A DNA stretch of 21,422 bases. Source: a virus. The position numbers were made by a program, and so were the translations under genes. This document shows positions 1,702 to 7,616 of this stretch, piece by piece; positions within the stretch are counted from its first letter, which is position 1; the number at the start of each line of letters is the position of its first letter. The notes under the pieces were generated by a model, which did not search any database, was not told the origin of the DNA, and saw nothing but the letters and a program-made list of their open reading frames with translations. The stretch lies in IMG/VR virus record IMGVR_UViG_3300031774_000188, positions 1-21,422 of that record; one strand, 5' to 3'.

Positions 1702-2500
1702 CCAGAGGATTAAACAGCTTATAGATGGACTGCACCTAGATTTTAGTCAGAGTTTAACACTTAACTGCCCTGTCTGTGGTGGGTACAAGAAGTTCAGTGT
1801 GACTAACCTAGATGGAACAATAGTGTATAACTGTTACAGGAATAGCTGTGGCACTAAAGGAGCAGTGAAGACTACTATGACAAGTGAGCAAGTACAAAAG
1901 AAGATGAGATTAGCCCACGAAGCTAGAAAGAGAAGCCTAGACTTTGTATTACCTGAGTATATAACAGTAGATATTCTTAACACATCCATGAAAAGATTTA
2001 TCAATAGGTGGGGTCTACGAAATGTACGTTTATACTATGACGTTAAAGATAAACGAGCAGTGTTTCCTATCTTTGAAAACAACAAGATGGTAGGAGCTAT
2101 AGGTAGAGCTTTAAATAATATCTTTCCCAAGTGGTTACGTTACGACAAGACTGCTAATTACTATTCGCATGTACTAACTAGCGAATCATCTGTAGCTGTA
2201 GTAGTTGAAGACGTTATCTCAGCTACAGTACTAGCTCAAGAGATACCTCAAGTTACAGGTGTAGCGATTTTGGGTACATCGTTAAACGACAAACACAGGG
2301 AGTACTTAACTAAGTTTAAAAAGATAGTGATAGCTTTAGATCCAGATGCTGCAACTAAAACAATAGGTTACACTAAAGAGTTAAAGTCTTTTTGTGGAGA
2401 TAAGACATCAGTTTTAGCTTACAGATTAGAAGACGATATTAAATACAGGCGAGAAAACGACATCAATAACATAAAGGAGATAACTAATGAAAAAGTGTAG
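1694..2500 (+). CDS. DNA primase, zinc-finger plus Toprim (T7 gp4 primase-half type)
   Basis: It makes RNA primers for lagging-strand synthesis. The 268-residue product begins with a four-cysteine zinc-binding module (Cys25, Cys28, Cys47, Cys52) of the kind that recognises the priming trinucleotide in T7 gp4. A Toprim fold follows, with the catalytic glutamate Glu172 in VVVEDVISA and the metal-binding Asp216 and Asp218 in ALDPDAA. No helicase domain follows, so the T7 primase-helicase fusion is here two genes, the helicase being at 2987. ATG 1694 is preferred over an upstream in-frame start at 1649 because GAGGAG lies just before it and the extra residues lie wholly inside the integrase gene. 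It overlaps int by 8 bases and the next gene by 14. Confidence 0.92.
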   Translation: MSNQRIKQLIDGLHLDFSQSLTLNCPVCGGYKKFSVTNLDGTIVYNCYRNSCGTKGAVKTTMTSEQVQKKMRLAHEARKRSLDFVLPEYITVDILNTSMKRFINRWGLRNVRLYYDVKDKRAVFPIFENNKMVGAIGRALNNIFPKWLRYDKTANYYSHVLTSESSVAVVVEDVISATVLAQEIPQVTGVAILGTSLNDKHREYLTKFKKIVIALDPDAATKTIGYTKELKSFCGDKTSVLAYRLEDDIKYRRENDINNIKEITNEKV

Positions 2501-2990
2501 TACATGTGGAGAAACACTAGTTAAAGATGTAAATTGGACACATTCTAGGTATAATAAAGGTATTAATAAATGTAAATATTGTAATAGCGATGAAGGTAAT
2601 AAAGATAGGATGTGGGTAAACGGTGTTTACATACCTACAAGTCACCCAGATTGGAAAGCAGGGTATTATAAAGATTGGTCTAGTGTAGCTTTCTCTAATA
2701 TGAACAACTACAATAAAAAAACTGAAGGTGACGTATATGTTATTACAAACCCTGCATGGAAAAACTGGTATAAAATAGGTAAGGCAGTAGATGCAGAGGA
2801 TAGATGTAAAGGATACCAAACAAGTAGCCCACATAGAGACTACGAGCTAGTAAAAGTAATTCCTTGTGATGATAGGAATAGAGCAGAAATACTAGCCCAT
2901 AGAGCCGCAGAAAAAATATGTGTTGAAAAAAGAAACGAATGGTTCTATACTGAAAACTTAAATGAATTAATAGAAGGAATCACACCATGA
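2487..2990 (+). CDS. GIY-YIG superfamily nuclease-like protein (T5orf172/MUG113 type)
   Basis: The 167-residue product has two parts. Residues 1-35 contain a zinc-ribbon pattern (Cys4, Cys7, Cys29, Cys32). Residues 82-155 look like the T5orf172/MUG113 branch of the GIY-YIG nucleases. VYVITN (83-88) stands for GIY and YKIGKA (95-100) for YIG, with Arg106, an acidic AEILAH helix and NEWF near the end. GIY-YIG enzymes cut DNA, and several act as homing endonucleases. It lies between primase and helicase, the point at which the T7 fusion would be joined. It may be a mobile nuclease or a domesticated one. It has a strong AAGGAG site and overlaps both neighbours, so it is co-transcribed with them. 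Confidence 0.75.
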   Translation: MKKCSTCGETLVKDVNWTHSRYNKGINKCKYCNSDEGNKDRMWVNGVYIPTSHPDWKAGYYKDWSSVAFSNMNNYNKKTEGDVYVITNPAWKNWYKIGKAVDAEDRCKGYQTSSPHRDYELVKVIPCDDRNRAEILAHRAAEKICVEKRNEWFYTENLNELIEGITP

Positions 2991-4213
2991 TGGAATTAGC
3001 ACTAATTCGTAGTTTAATGAACAAGGACTTCTATGAAGACCACAAGGGTATACGTTGCCCAGATAAGCTGTTCACTAAAGATATACGGAAGATTAAGCAG
3101 ACAGTAGACTACGCAATGGAGAACTTTGAGAAAGACTTAACTGTATCGGAGTTGCAAGGTTTGTTTATGACTAGCAACAGTACAATGACTACAGCTACTA
3201 AAGAATCATATGACCAACTATTCAGTAAACTAGAACAGGAGAAGCCTATGTGTCAGGACATATCTAAGCAAGTATTTTCTAAATTGTTTCAACAGATGGT
3301 AGGCGAGGAAATAGCCAACTTAGGTTTTGACTACGTTAACGGTGACAAGAGTACACTAGAACCATTACGAGTATTACTAAACGACTACCACGATAACTTT
3401 TTACCTAACCTAAATGTTGAGTGGGAAGATATGAGCATAGACACACTACTTAAAGCTAACGCTATACAGAGCCAGTGGAAGTTTAACATACCTAGTTTGC
3501 AGAGAAAGGTGGAGGGTATTAGTGGAGGACATTTAGTTCTAATAGGAGCAAGACCTAACACAGGTAAGACTAGCTTCCACGCATCATTGATAGCTTCTAA
3601 AGATGGATTTGCAGAGCAAGGAGCTAAGTGTATTATCTTATGTAATGAAGAAGCATATGATAGGGTTGGAGCTAGGTATCTTTCAGCCGCTACAAATATG
3701 AGTATGGATGAGGTGCGTCAAAATGTCTCATTAGCTTCAGCTAGGTATCAGCCAGTTAAAGACAATGTATACGTTAAGGATACAACAGGAAAAGATATGG
3801 CTTGGGTTGAGGCAGTAGTTAAAGCTACTACACCTGACGTAGTAGTGTTAGATATGGGAGATAAGTTTGCTAACAGAACAGGAGAACGATCTGACATATA
3901 CTTAAAAGAATCAGCTATACACGCTAGAAACATAGCTAAACAATATAACTGTGCAATTCTGTGGATGTCACAACTATCAGCAGAAGCTGAAGGTAAAATT
4001 ATGGTAGATCAATCTATGCTTGAAGGTAGTAAGACAGGCAAGGCATCTGAGTCAGACTTGATGCTACTTATCAGTAAGAACCCTACTATAGAAGGACAAG
4101 AAAATGAAGATACAGAACGGCACATAGTTATAGCTAAGAATAAGCTTAAAGGTGGATGGCACGGTGTTGTCACTGTTCAGTTAGATGGAGAAAGAGCTAG
4201 GTTTACAGCATGA
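2987..4213 (+). CDS. Replicative DNA helicase, DnaB/gp4-like RecA-fold
   Basis: A hexameric 5'-3' helicase that unwinds DNA ahead of the phage polymerase. The 408-residue product has a helical N-terminal region (about 1-150) and a RecA-like motor. Walker A is GARPNTGKTS with Lys194, a Glu-rich ILCNEEA follows the next strand, Walker B is VVVLDMGD with Asp289, and WMSQLSAEAEGK is the H3-type sensor region. LEGSKTGKASESDLMLLIS matches the DnaB region that reaches the neighbouring subunit. It starts inside the nuclease stop (ATGATG) and ends in an ATGA overlap with the polymerase gene, so the genes are translationally coupled. Confidence 0.92.
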   Translation: MMELALIRSLMNKDFYEDHKGIRCPDKLFTKDIRKIKQTVDYAMENFEKDLTVSELQGLFMTSNSTMTTATKESYDQLFSKLEQEKPMCQDISKQVFSKLFQQMVGEEIANLGFDYVNGDKSTLEPLRVLLNDYHDNFLPNLNVEWEDMSIDTLLKANAIQSQWKFNIPSLQRKVEGISGGHLVLIGARPNTGKTSFHASLIASKDGFAEQGAKCIILCNEEAYDRVGARYLSAATNMSMDEVRQNVSLASARYQPVKDNVYVKDTTGKDMAWVEAVVKATTPDVVVLDMGDKFANRTGERSDIYLKESAIHARNIAKQYNCAILWMSQLSAEAEGKIMVDQSMLEGSKTGKASESDLMLLISKNPTIEGQENEDTERHIVIAKNKLKGGWHGVVTVQLDGERARFTA

Positions 4214-6261
4214 AGCTAATACTTGACGTAGAGAACACTACAACAAAACGAGATGGTAAGAATCATCTTGACCCTTTTGAGCCATCTAACACTCTAACTC
4301 AAGTGGGTGTTCTTAATGCACAGGGTAGCAAACCTCATGTGTTTACTTATGACCACACTGAGAAGCAAGACACTGATGGTTCGCAAAGGAAACAACTACA
4401 GGCTGTACTAGATAAAACGACACTCCTGATAGGACACAACTTACAGCACGACTTACAGTGGTTGTGGGCATGTGGGTTTAAGTACGATGGCACAGTGTAC
4501 GATACCATGTTAGCTGAATACTTATTACAAAGAGGACAAAAGAACTCTGTATCTCTTGAGGCTTGTGCAGATAGGTATGAACTAGGCTACCAGAAGCAAG
4601 ACACTCTAAAGAAATACTTTGCTGACGGATATAACACTAATGAGATACCATTGGCTGAGTTATCAGGTTACTTAGAGCAAGACCTGTATGTAACTAAATG
4701 TCTGTACCATAGGTTAGAGAAAGAGTATGAAGCTCCAGAGGCACAGTCTCTACTTGGAGTTAGGGATATAAACAATGACGTTTGTAAGACCCTTACTAAG
4801 ATGTACATGAGTGGCTTTAAGATAGACAAAGATGCCCTAGCTGAAGTGAGAAAGCAGTTTGAGACAGAACTAGCAGAGATAGAACAGAGATTAAACACTA
4901 CAGTAAAAACTATTATGGGTGACACTCCTATCAACCTTAACTCACCAGAACAAGTTAGCCAAGTAATATACTCTAGGAAGGTACGGAACAAAAAAGAATG
5001 GGCTGTGTTGTTTGATTATGTAAACACTAAGGATGAGTTTCTATCAGCATACAAGTCTAATAGTGACATGATGATGCGAACTAAGGCACACACATGTTTA
5101 AAGTGTAATGGCACTGGCAAGGTGCGTAAGACTAGAAAGGATGGGAAGCCTTTTGCCAAGCCTACTAAGTGTGACGCATGTGAAGCTAAAGGATACCTGT
5201 ACACTGAAACTAGCACTATGGCAGGGCTAGGCTTTGCACCTCCATCTAAGGATTGGGTGAGTGCCAATGGTTTTACTACCAGTAAAGGCAACTTAGAAAC
5301 GCTTATGTCAGCCGCTAAGAGTAAGAACATGGACACAGCATACGACTTCCTGTCTGATTTAAAGCGTCAGAGTGCTATCTCCAGTTACTTATCTAGCTTT
5401 GTTGAAGGCATACACAACTTCACTAAGCCTGATGGGTTACTCCATGTAGGTTTAACTCAGCACGTTACAGCTACAGGCAGGTTCTCAGGGCGAAACCCTA
5501 ACATGCAGAATATGCCTAGAGGAGGTACGTTCCCTGTTAAGCGAGTATTTGTATCCAGATGGAATGGAGGTAAGATTATAGAGGCTGACTTTGCACAGCT
5601 AGAGTTTAGAGTTGCCGCTTTGTTATCTCAAGACCAGACAGCTATGAAAGAAGTTGAGACAGGCTTTGATGTTCATAGCTATACAGCTAAAGTTATATCT
5701 GATGCAGGTCAACCAACATCACGACAAGAAGCTAAAGCTCATACCTTTGCACCGTTGTACGGAGCTACAGGGTACGGCAGGAGTAAAGCAGAGGCTGAGT
5801 ACTACACTCACTTTACATCTAAGTATAAGGGGATAGCTAAGTGGCACAAGAAGCTAGGCAATGAAGCTATTAACTTAGGCAAAATAACTACACCTTCAGG
5901 AAGACAATATGCGTTTCCTGATGTAGAGAGAAGGACTAATGGCAACCCTTCTCATTTCACTATGATTAAGAACTACCCTGTACAAGGCTTTGCTACAGGA
6001 GATATAGTTCCTATCGTACTCCTAGAGATAGAGAAGCGTTTAGATATAGACGGATTAAATAGTCTACTAGTAAACACAGTTCACGATTCTGTGGTGATAG
6101 ATGTCCATCCATCTGAGGAGAAAGCAGTCTTGGGGATAATCCAAGAAATAAATGACAAGTTGTCTGACATAATTGAATCGTACTACGATATAGATATTAA
6201 CGTGCCAATGTTACTAGAAGCTAAGATGGGTAATAATTGGCTTGACACTGTTGATATTTAG
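4210..6261 (+). CDS. Family A DNA polymerase with 3'-5' exonuclease and inserted DnaJ-type zinc segment
   Basis: This is the replicative polymerase, 683 residues, near the size of T7 gp5. The DEDDy exonuclease occupies about residues 1-200: Asp6 and Glu8 (LDVENT), Asp81 (GHNLQHDL), Tyr154 and Asp158 (YLEQD). Polymerase motifs follow: motif A ADFAQLEFR with Asp460, motif B with Arg505, Lys509, Phe513 and Tyr517 (RQEAKAHTFAPLYG), and motif C VHDS with Asp626. Phe513 aligns with E. coli Pol I Phe762. Between the two domains, residues 296-328 carry CLKCNGTGK and CDACEAKG, that is CX2CXGXG and CX2CX3G, two of the four repeats of the DnaJ central domain. This arrangement is known to me from SAR116 phage HMO-2011 and is the best clue to phage type. 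A promoter overlaps the end of the gene. Confidence 0.95.
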   Translation: MKLILDVENTTTKRDGKNHLDPFEPSNTLTQVGVLNAQGSKPHVFTYDHTEKQDTDGSQRKQLQAVLDKTTLLIGHNLQHDLQWLWACGFKYDGTVYDTMLAEYLLQRGQKNSVSLEACADRYELGYQKQDTLKKYFADGYNTNEIPLAELSGYLEQDLYVTKCLYHRLEKEYEAPEAQSLLGVRDINNDVCKTLTKMYMSGFKIDKDALAEVRKQFETELAEIEQRLNTTVKTIMGDTPINLNSPEQVSQVIYSRKVRNKKEWAVLFDYVNTKDEFLSAYKSNSDMMMRTKAHTCLKCNGTGKVRKTRKDGKPFAKPTKCDACEAKGYLYTETSTMAGLGFAPPSKDWVSANGFTTSKGNLETLMSAAKSKNMDTAYDFLSDLKRQSAISSYLSSFVEGIHNFTKPDGLLHVGLTQHVTATGRFSGRNPNMQNMPRGGTFPVKRVFVSRWNGGKIIEADFAQLEFRVAALLSQDQTAMKEVETGFDVHSYTAKVISDAGQPTSRQEAKAHTFAPLYGATGYGRSKAEAEYYTHFTSKYKGIAKWHKKLGNEAINLGKITTPSGRQYAFPDVERRTNGNPSHFTMIKNYPVQGFATGDIVPIVLLEIEKRLDIDGLNSLLVNTVHDSVVIDVHPSEEKAVLGIIQEINDKLSDIIESYYDIDINVPMLLEAKMGNNWLDTVDI

Positions 6262-6734: not shown

Positions 6735-7616
6735 ATGGAAAATAATTTAAGTGTAATTGAAAGTAACCCTTCAGCATTAGCTGATATTATGGGAGTGTCA
6801 CAATCAAGTGGTACTTCAAGGTCAGCCTTGGCTGAAGTTAAACAAATACATCAGCCTATTATGGGTACTAAGAATGTAGACGGTGAGGACATGGAGGTTG
6901 CAGTTATTAAAGCTTCTTCTTACTCTGTGACCTTTCCTGACGGTAGTATGTACTACAGTCCTACAGTTACCATCAGACCTTTTATGCAAAGGTTTCAGTT
7001 CCAAAGATGGGATGGAAACTATAAAAGTGATGAAGGTAAGGAAGGACGCATGTTGAAAACTGTGTTGGCGAAATCGCTTAACCAAGACTTAAAGGATAAC
7101 TATGGTGGATATAACTGTGGTAGACCTTCAGGCTACGTTGAGGATTTCAAGGCTCTCCCCTCCAAGACACAGGAACTCATGCGTCAGACCAAGCGAGTCA
7201 AAGTGATGTTTGGCTTGTGTACACTCGACAAACCAATGGACGAAAACGGTGAGCCTGTTGATGTAAAAGAGTTCCCTTTCTTTATGAATGTAAAGAACAG
7301 AGAAAGCTACAAAAACATGGATGCTATTTACAATACTATTCAAAAGAAGAATAGATTACCAATACATTTTGAAATATTGTTATCTGGTGAAGTAAAGAGT
7401 ATTCCTACAGGAGCTACCTATGGTGTTATCCAAGCTAAATTGGGTAAGTCTGTTGAAGTTACTCTTGACGATCAGGAGGTCTTGAATAACTTTGTTGAGT
7501 GGGTGGAAGCTACTAACTCTATGGTTCTTAACTACTGGGCAGAAAACAATAAGGAGGTTCTCTCCCAAGAAGACTCCGATATTGTAGGCTCAATAGTTGA
7601 AATTGACGAGGAGTAA
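6735..7616 (+). CDS. Hypothetical protein, candidate single-stranded DNA-binding protein (293 aa)
   Basis: I cannot match this to a named family by sequence. It starts directly after the preceding stop, behind AAAGGAA. The body contains aromatic and basic stretches (RPFMQRFQFQRWDGNYKS near residues 82-99) and the tail is acidic, ending IVGSIVEIDEE. A hydrophobic or aromatic core with an acidic C-terminal tail is the general plan of phage ssDNA-binding proteins such as T7 gp2.5. The gene also sits between polymerase and the recombination nucleases, where gp2.5 is expected, and no other SSB is visible. The gene is certain. The SSB role is inference, perhaps 40%. Confidence 0.8.
   Translation: MENNLSVIESNPSALADIMGVSQSSGTSRSALAEVKQIHQPIMGTKNVDGEDMEVAVIKASSYSVTFPDGSMYYSPTVTIRPFMQRFQFQRWDGNYKSDEGKEGRMLKTVLAKSLNQDLKDNYGGYNCGRPSGYVEDFKALPSKTQELMRQTKRVKVMFGLCTLDKPMDENGEPVDVKEFPFFMNVKNRESYKNMDAIYNTIQKKNRLPIHFEILLSGEVKSIPTGATYGVIQAKLGKSVEVTLDDQEVLNNFVEWVEATNSMVLNYWAENNKEVLSQEDSDIVGSIVEIDEE

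What the first reader, a model, noticed from the sequence alone, without database searches (positions are those of the whole stretch)
5094..5194. DnaJ-type zinc segment inside a family A DNA polymerase
Residues 296-328 carry CX2CXGXG and CX2CX3G, two repeats of the DnaJ central zinc domain, between intact exonuclease and polymerase domains. All catalytic motifs on either side are present, so the insert is tolerated and probably useful. From memory this is a hallmark of the HMO-2011 phage type. Its function is not known to me. It could act as a thumb-like processivity arm, taking the place that thioredoxin binding has in T7, or be a docking site for helicase or primase.
Basis: partly seen in the sequence, partly recalled or inferred. 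Interest (0 to 1): 0.65.

Follow-up and report, generated by a model that had tools for sequence, protein, structure and literature searches.

The report
Zinc-tipped thumb insert in phage polymerase
The DNA-copying enzyme of this marine phage carries a small zinc-held, positively charged finger, already known as the trademark of HMO-2011-type phages, and it sits at the tip of the part of the enzyme that grips DNA, next to but not in the spot where phage T7 binds its thioredoxin helper.

Summary
The ORF at 4210-6261 (+) is a 683-aa family A DNA polymerase. CX2CXGXG (aa 296-303) and CX2CX3G (aa 321-328) lie at window 5095-5193. The four cysteines are invariant in 248/248 relatives down to 35% identity, while the protein's four other cysteines vary. 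Papers from 2019 and 2022 describe this partial DnaJ central domain as the hallmark of HMO-2011-type phages, without a function.

New here is the placement. By alignment anchored on E. coli Pol I, the zinc tip belongs to an insert of about 85-95 aa at the thumb tip, after Pol I residue ~594 (helix H1). T7's thioredoxin-binding domain enters before that helix: a neighbouring site. Cysteine-free inserts (49-123 aa) occupy the same site in phiKMV-like and Zobellviridae-like phages, so zinc looks like a variant of a wider thumb insert. The AF2 model shows a two-stranded stalk; the strongly basic tip resembles single DnaJ-type zinc modules (Anti-TRAP, DnaJ repeats 2-3, UvrA, lambda Q).

Most likely role, inferred: a zinc-stiffened arm gripping primer-template duplex, giving thioredoxin-independent processivity. 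Rival: a docking site for the acidic tail of the neighbouring conserved ORF 6735-7613.

The parts
4210..6261 (+). family A DNA polymerase, 683 aa, 3'-5' exonuclease plus polymerase
   Evidence: Pfam PF01612 and PF00476; HMO-2011 DNAP 58.6% identical over full length; AF2 pLDDT 91.6
4930..4980 (+). thumb helix H1 motif INLNSPEQVSQVIYSRK (aa 241-257), counterpart of Pol I FNLSSTKQLQTILFEKQ (578-594) and T7 FNPSSRDHIQKKL
   Evidence: alignments
4981..5241 (+). thumb-tip insert (about aa 258-344): two helices (261-270, 274-283), two-stranded stalk (289-295 / 329-337), zinc tip
   Evidence: no counterpart in Pol I, T7 or StenR_269; secondary structure from AF2
5095..5118 (+). first repeat CLKCNGTG (aa 296-303)
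   Evidence: Cys 248/248
5119..5169 (+). basic loop/hairpin KVRKTRKDGKPFAKPTK (aa 304-320); K310 and G312 invariant, 307 and 309 always K/R, 317 and 320 mostly K/R
   Evidence: column counts; aa 290-332 carry +17 net charge per 100 aa on average, about 0 in aa 346-683
5170..5193 (+). second repeat CDACEAKG (aa 321-328), incomplete
   Evidence: Cys 248/248
6735..7616 (+). 293-aa conserved protein of unknown family with an acidic C-terminal tail; possible SSB-like partner (inference)
   Evidence: matches in 206 ORFs of fetched loci; last 20 aa net acidic in 193/193; no convincing Pfam, PHROG or PDB relative

Best explanation
The segment is the tip of a thumb insert in an HMO-2011-type replicative DNA polymerase. 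Four cysteines bind one zinc ion in the manner of a single DnaJ-type module (the repeat 2-3 half of DnaJ) and close a basic loop on a two-stranded stalk that grows out of the thumb between helices H1 and H2. The arm most likely lies along the primer-template duplex behind the active site and holds it through phosphate contacts, so the polymerase stays on DNA without host thioredoxin. Shown: sequence, strict conservation, insertion point by alignment, predicted secondary structure, charge, resemblance to zinc modules. Inferred: zinc binding, DNA contact, effect on processivity.
For: Four Cys invariant in 248 relatives while the others drift. Basic tip, positive in all 72 representatives (+7 to +23 per 100 aa), against about 0 for aa 346-683. 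The insert point maps to E. coli Pol I ~594-597, in the thumb tip; from memory, deletion of Pol I residues 590-613 lowers DNA binding and processivity. Confident AF2 models of the whole protein and of the insert. Top matches of the insert are DnaJ-type zinc modules, including two from nucleic-acid machines, UvrA and lambda Q. In UvrA the hairpin of the third zinc module contacts DNA (PMC7835731), and in lambda Q the zinc finger is described as taking part in DNA recognition (PMC9371919). T7 and human mitochondrial polymerases gain processivity through thumb inserts (PMC7699545).
Against: No structure with DNA and no coordinates, so contact with DNA was not tested. The structural matches are weak by score (Foldseek E >= 0.2, VIA Z <= 4.8). 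[quoted passage not shown] A basic surface fits acidic protein tails equally well. Cysteine-free inserts at the same site are less charged in some phages (net -1 to +7).
Confidence: 0.48

Rival explanations
1. The zinc arm is a docking site for other replication proteins, such as the acidic C-terminal tail of the 293-aa protein encoded just downstream (a candidate single-strand binding protein) or the DnaB-like helicase, as the T7 thioredoxin-binding domain docks the T7 SSB.
For: The downstream ORF is conserved next to the polymerase and has an acidic tail in 193/193 relatives. The T7 TBD mediates contact with the C-terminal tail of T7 SSB (PMC7699545). DnaJ-type zinc modules often bind proteins (DnaJ, BSD2, Anti-TRAP).
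Against: The SSB identity is a guess: no family or PDB match. The helicase ends show no conserved acidic tail. No co-variation was tested.
Confidence: 0.27
2. The zinc is purely structural: it replaces a hydrophobic core in a thumb insert that other phages of this wider group keep without cysteines, and the tip has no partner of its own.
For: Cysteine-free inserts of 49-123 aa occupy the same site in eight other phage polymerases.
Against: K310, G312 and T291 are invariant, and positions 290, 307 and 309 always hold K or R, beyond what zinc binding needs.
Confidence: 0.18
3. A co-chaperone module that recruits host DnaK, by analogy with DnaJ in lambda replication (analogy raised in PMC9038755).
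For: Best sequence match among solved structures is the E. coli DnaJ Cys-rich domain, E 0.0024.
Against: Only half of the Cys-rich domain, no J domain detected, and strong basic charge. The same module occurs in non-chaperones (Anti-TRAP, UvrA, lambda Q).
Confidence: 0.04

Closest known systems
HMO-2011-type DNA polymerase (Puniceispirillum phage HMO-2011, RCA phages CRP-1/-2/-3, pelagiphage HTVC033P)
   Same: full-length homologue (58.6% to HMO-2011, 65% to CRP-603), same partial DnaJ segment between exonuclease and polymerase domains, same primase-helicase-polymerase gene order
   Different: nothing essential; second repeat is CX2CX3G where HMO-2011 has CPACHGDG, and a GIY-YIG-like gene sits between primase and helicase
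T7 gp5 with its thioredoxin-binding domain
   Same: family A phage polymerase with an insert of about 75-90 aa at the thumb tip that carries many basic residues
   Different: T7 insert enters before helix H1, this one after it; no similar sequence; T7 insert has no zinc motif and needs thioredoxin
phiKMV-like and Zobellviridae-like phage polymerases (Bf7, PSTNGR1, TS-10, H4/4, RHph_N37, Saratov-12, MEP402, QDWS535)
   Same: insert at the same H1-H2 site, no T7-type domain by alignment, motif C without Glu
   Different: no cysteine pairs; 49-123 aa against about 97-110 aa over the same columns; less basic in several
Single DnaJ-type zinc modules: DnaJ repeats 2-3, Anti-TRAP, UvrA zinc module, lambda Q zinc finger
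   Same: CX2C pairs around a short hairpin; best structural matches of the insert model
   Different: different host proteins; the match scores are low and homology is not shown

Membership tests
HMO-2011-type DNA polymerase | family A polymerase with 3'-5' exonuclease domain | tested here: met
   PF01612 and PF00476 above cut-off
HMO-2011-type DNA polymerase | partial DnaJ central domain with two CXXCXGXG-type repeats between the two domains (PMC9038755) | tested here: met
   aa 290-332; first repeat complete, second lacks one Gly
HMO-2011-type DNA polymerase | closest full-length relatives are HMO-2011-type phages | tested here: met
   top 12 tblastn records all HMO-2011-type; same 12 only for aa 238-400; tree groups the zinc forms, support 83/94
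DnaJ / Hsp40 type I chaperone | J domain | tested here: not met
   no J-domain match in Pfam scan of the polymerase
DnaJ / Hsp40 type I chaperone | four CXXCXGXG repeats, two zinc sites | tested here: not met
   two repeats only; profile aligns to repeats 2-3 of E. coli DnaJ
T7-type thioredoxin-binding domain | insert between helices H and H1 of the thumb | tested here: not met
   with Pol I as bridge the T7 insert ends at FNPSS (Pol I ~577) and this insert starts after Pol I 594; no direct structural superposition
T7-type thioredoxin-binding domain | binds host thioredoxin | not testable with these tools
   needs biochemistry
DnaJ-type zinc module (fold) | two CX2C pairs brought together around one zinc | tested here: inconclusive
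   insert model pLDDT 89.8; top structural matches are such modules but with low scores; Cys-Cys distances not measurable here

The most novel reading that the evidence does not exclude
Phage family A polymerases have a second thumb insertion site (between H1 and H2), distinct from the T7 thioredoxin site, that gives thioredoxin-independent processivity in phiKMV-like, Zobellviridae-like and HMO-2011-type phages, with the HMO-2011 type having turned it into a zinc-held DNA clamp.
Probability: 0.35. Interest if true: 0.6.

Novelty: already known. Interest (0 to 1): 0.32.

Why it matters
HMO-2011-type phages are among the dominant marine phages (PMC9038755), and the trademark of their polymerase has no assigned function. 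Placing it at a second thumb-tip site, shared with cysteine-free inserts of phages that lack the T7 thioredoxin domain, turns a curiosity into a direct test of how these phages replicate processively.

Tried and rejected
Unanchored alignment with intact T7 gp5 lays the T7 domain opposite the zinc segment. It was rejected because it breaks the FN(L/P)SS helix match that T7-Pol I and window-Pol I show independently. The co-chaperone reading was rejected for lack of a J domain and half the Cys-rich domain. The whole-model structure comparison listed mainly bacterial Pol I fragments; T7 polymerase was not among the 50 rows shown, so a direct structural comparison with T7 was not made. The downstream 293-aa protein was tested for SSB kinship by profile searches without success, and its profile does not match the partial ORFs downstream of the polymerase in Bf7-like phages. 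The tree leaves the order of zinc-free and zinc inserts unresolved (open forks, long branches). The one scan of cellular genomes gave only MAG or single-cell contigs, probably phage.

Full report
Observation. The ORF at 4210-6261 (+) encodes a 683-aa family A DNA polymerase. CLKCNGTG (aa 296-303) and CDACEAKG (aa 321-328) lie at window 5095-5193. Pfam's DnaJ central domain model covers aa 290-332 below its curated cut-off (23.3 against 32.7 bits, E 7.7e-5), and 71 of 72 representative relatives hit it at E <= 0.01. Chance is not an explanation: a CX2C-X21-CX2C pattern is expected about 2e-6 times per such protein, and both Cys codons are used at all four sites.

Conservation. In 248 polymerases from viral contigs, 35-99% identical to this one, the four cysteines are invariant. 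The four other cysteines of the window protein are not (for example position 164 is mostly Glu, Arg or Ser). G301, K310, G312, G328 and T291 are also invariant in the 72 representatives. Among 50,697 phage records, only twelve, all HMO-2011-type, match aa 238-400.

What it is. The gene order integrase, primase, helicase, polymerase, 293-aa ORF, Cas4-like exonuclease, endonuclease I, B12-dependent RNR matches phage HMO-2011. The partial DnaJ segment is described as present in all reported HMO-2011-type polymerases, and used as the criterion for the group, in PMC9038755, PMC6918029 and PMC8528129. None of the passages read gives a tested function.

Where it sits. E. coli Pol I aligns without gap to aa 241-257 (INLNSPEQVSQVIYSRK against FNLSSTKQLQTILFEKQ, Pol I 578-594) and resumes around aa 345 (Pol I ~597). 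T7 gp5 aligns to Pol I with its own insert ending just before FNPSS. So the T7 thioredoxin-binding domain enters before this helix and the zinc insert after it. Alignments that keep the T7 domain in place and ignore this anchor put the two opposite each other; I consider these wrong, but no direct superposition with T7 was obtained. The helix names H, H1 and H2 follow the T7 and Pol I literature from memory.

A wider insert. Over the same columns, Pol I, T7 (its own domain removed) and StenR_269 have 12-19 residues and the zinc forms 97-110. Eight phiKMV-like, Zobellviridae-like and related phage polymerases have 49-123 without cysteine pairs. PMC5653853 reports from models that phiKMV-like polymerases, Bf7 among them, lack the T7 domain. 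The zinc forms group together in a tree made without the insert, support 83/94, one origin not ruled out; relations between insert types are unresolved.

Structure. AF2 with a 72-sequence alignment gives pLDDT 91.6 for the whole protein: helices 261-270 and 274-283, strands 289-295 and 329-337 flanking the zinc tip. The insert alone gives pLDDT 89.8. Its leading Foldseek and VIA matches are Anti-TRAP, DnaJA2, BSD2, UvrA, lambda Q and E. coli DnaJ, proteins with DnaJ-type or similar zinc modules, with low scores (Foldseek E >= 0.2; VIA Z 4.8 or less). A profile of the insert finds the E. coli DnaJ Cys-rich domain at E 0.0024, aligned to repeats 2-3. This supports the four cysteines meeting, but distances could not be measured.

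How it probably works. The zinc tip carries +17 net charges per 100 aa on average (positive in all representatives), against about zero for aa 346-683. The thumb of family A polymerases binds the duplex, and inserts there serve processivity in T7 and mitochondrial polymerases (PMC7699545). In T7, basic residues of the insert contact the DNA backbone in simulations (PMC5984650). The UvrA zinc-module hairpin contacts DNA (PMC7835731), and the lambda Q zinc finger is described as taking part in DNA recognition (PMC9371919). A zinc-stiffened DNA-gripping arm is my first choice (0.48). Docking of replisome partners is second (0.27): the conserved 293-aa ORF downstream has an acidic tail in 193/193 relatives, as T7 SSB does, but its identity is unproven. 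A purely structural zinc comes third (0.18).

Verdict. Confirmed, already known as a group hallmark. The added value is the insertion site, the shared cysteine-free inserts, and a testable mechanism.

Noticed in passing
window 6735-7616 (+): 293-aa ORF after the polymerase, conserved in over 200 ORFs of related loci, no family match, acidic C-terminal tail in every complete relative; candidate single-strand binding protein.
   Followed up: partly
window 6079-6090 (aa 624-627): Motif C is VHDS; the Glu that follows the catalytic Asp in Pol I and T7 is replaced by Ser in all HMO-2011-type relatives read and by Ser, Cys or Ala in the phiKMV- and Zobellviridae-like polymerases read.
   Followed up: partly
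window 2487-2990 (+): T5orf172/MUG113 (GIY-YIG-like) gene with an N-terminal CX2C pair, lying between primase and helicase; absent at this place in phage HMO-2011.
   Followed up: no
window 5746-5748 (aa F513): O-helix position equivalent to Pol I 762 is Phe, as reported for the HMO-2011-like clade in PMC6302109.
   Followed up: no
L086:1492-3603 (MEP402), L292:583-2498 (QDWS535), L297:353-2446 (Saratov-12): Polymerases of several relatives are annotated as two ORFs split at about the same place, near the start of the palm; PMC10580990 suggests an intron for MEP401/402.
   Followed up: no
L089:188-454: Stenotrophomonas phage StenR_269 carries its own thioredoxin-like gene just upstream of a family A polymerase that lacks both thumb inserts by alignment.
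   Followed up: no
L281-L290: HMO-2011-type polymerase genes occur in MAG and single-cell assemblies labelled Euryarchaeota, Flavobacteriales, Neomarinimicrobiota and others; the same contig is filed under two unrelated MAGs (L282/L283, L285/L286), so these are probably binned phage contigs.
   Followed up: no
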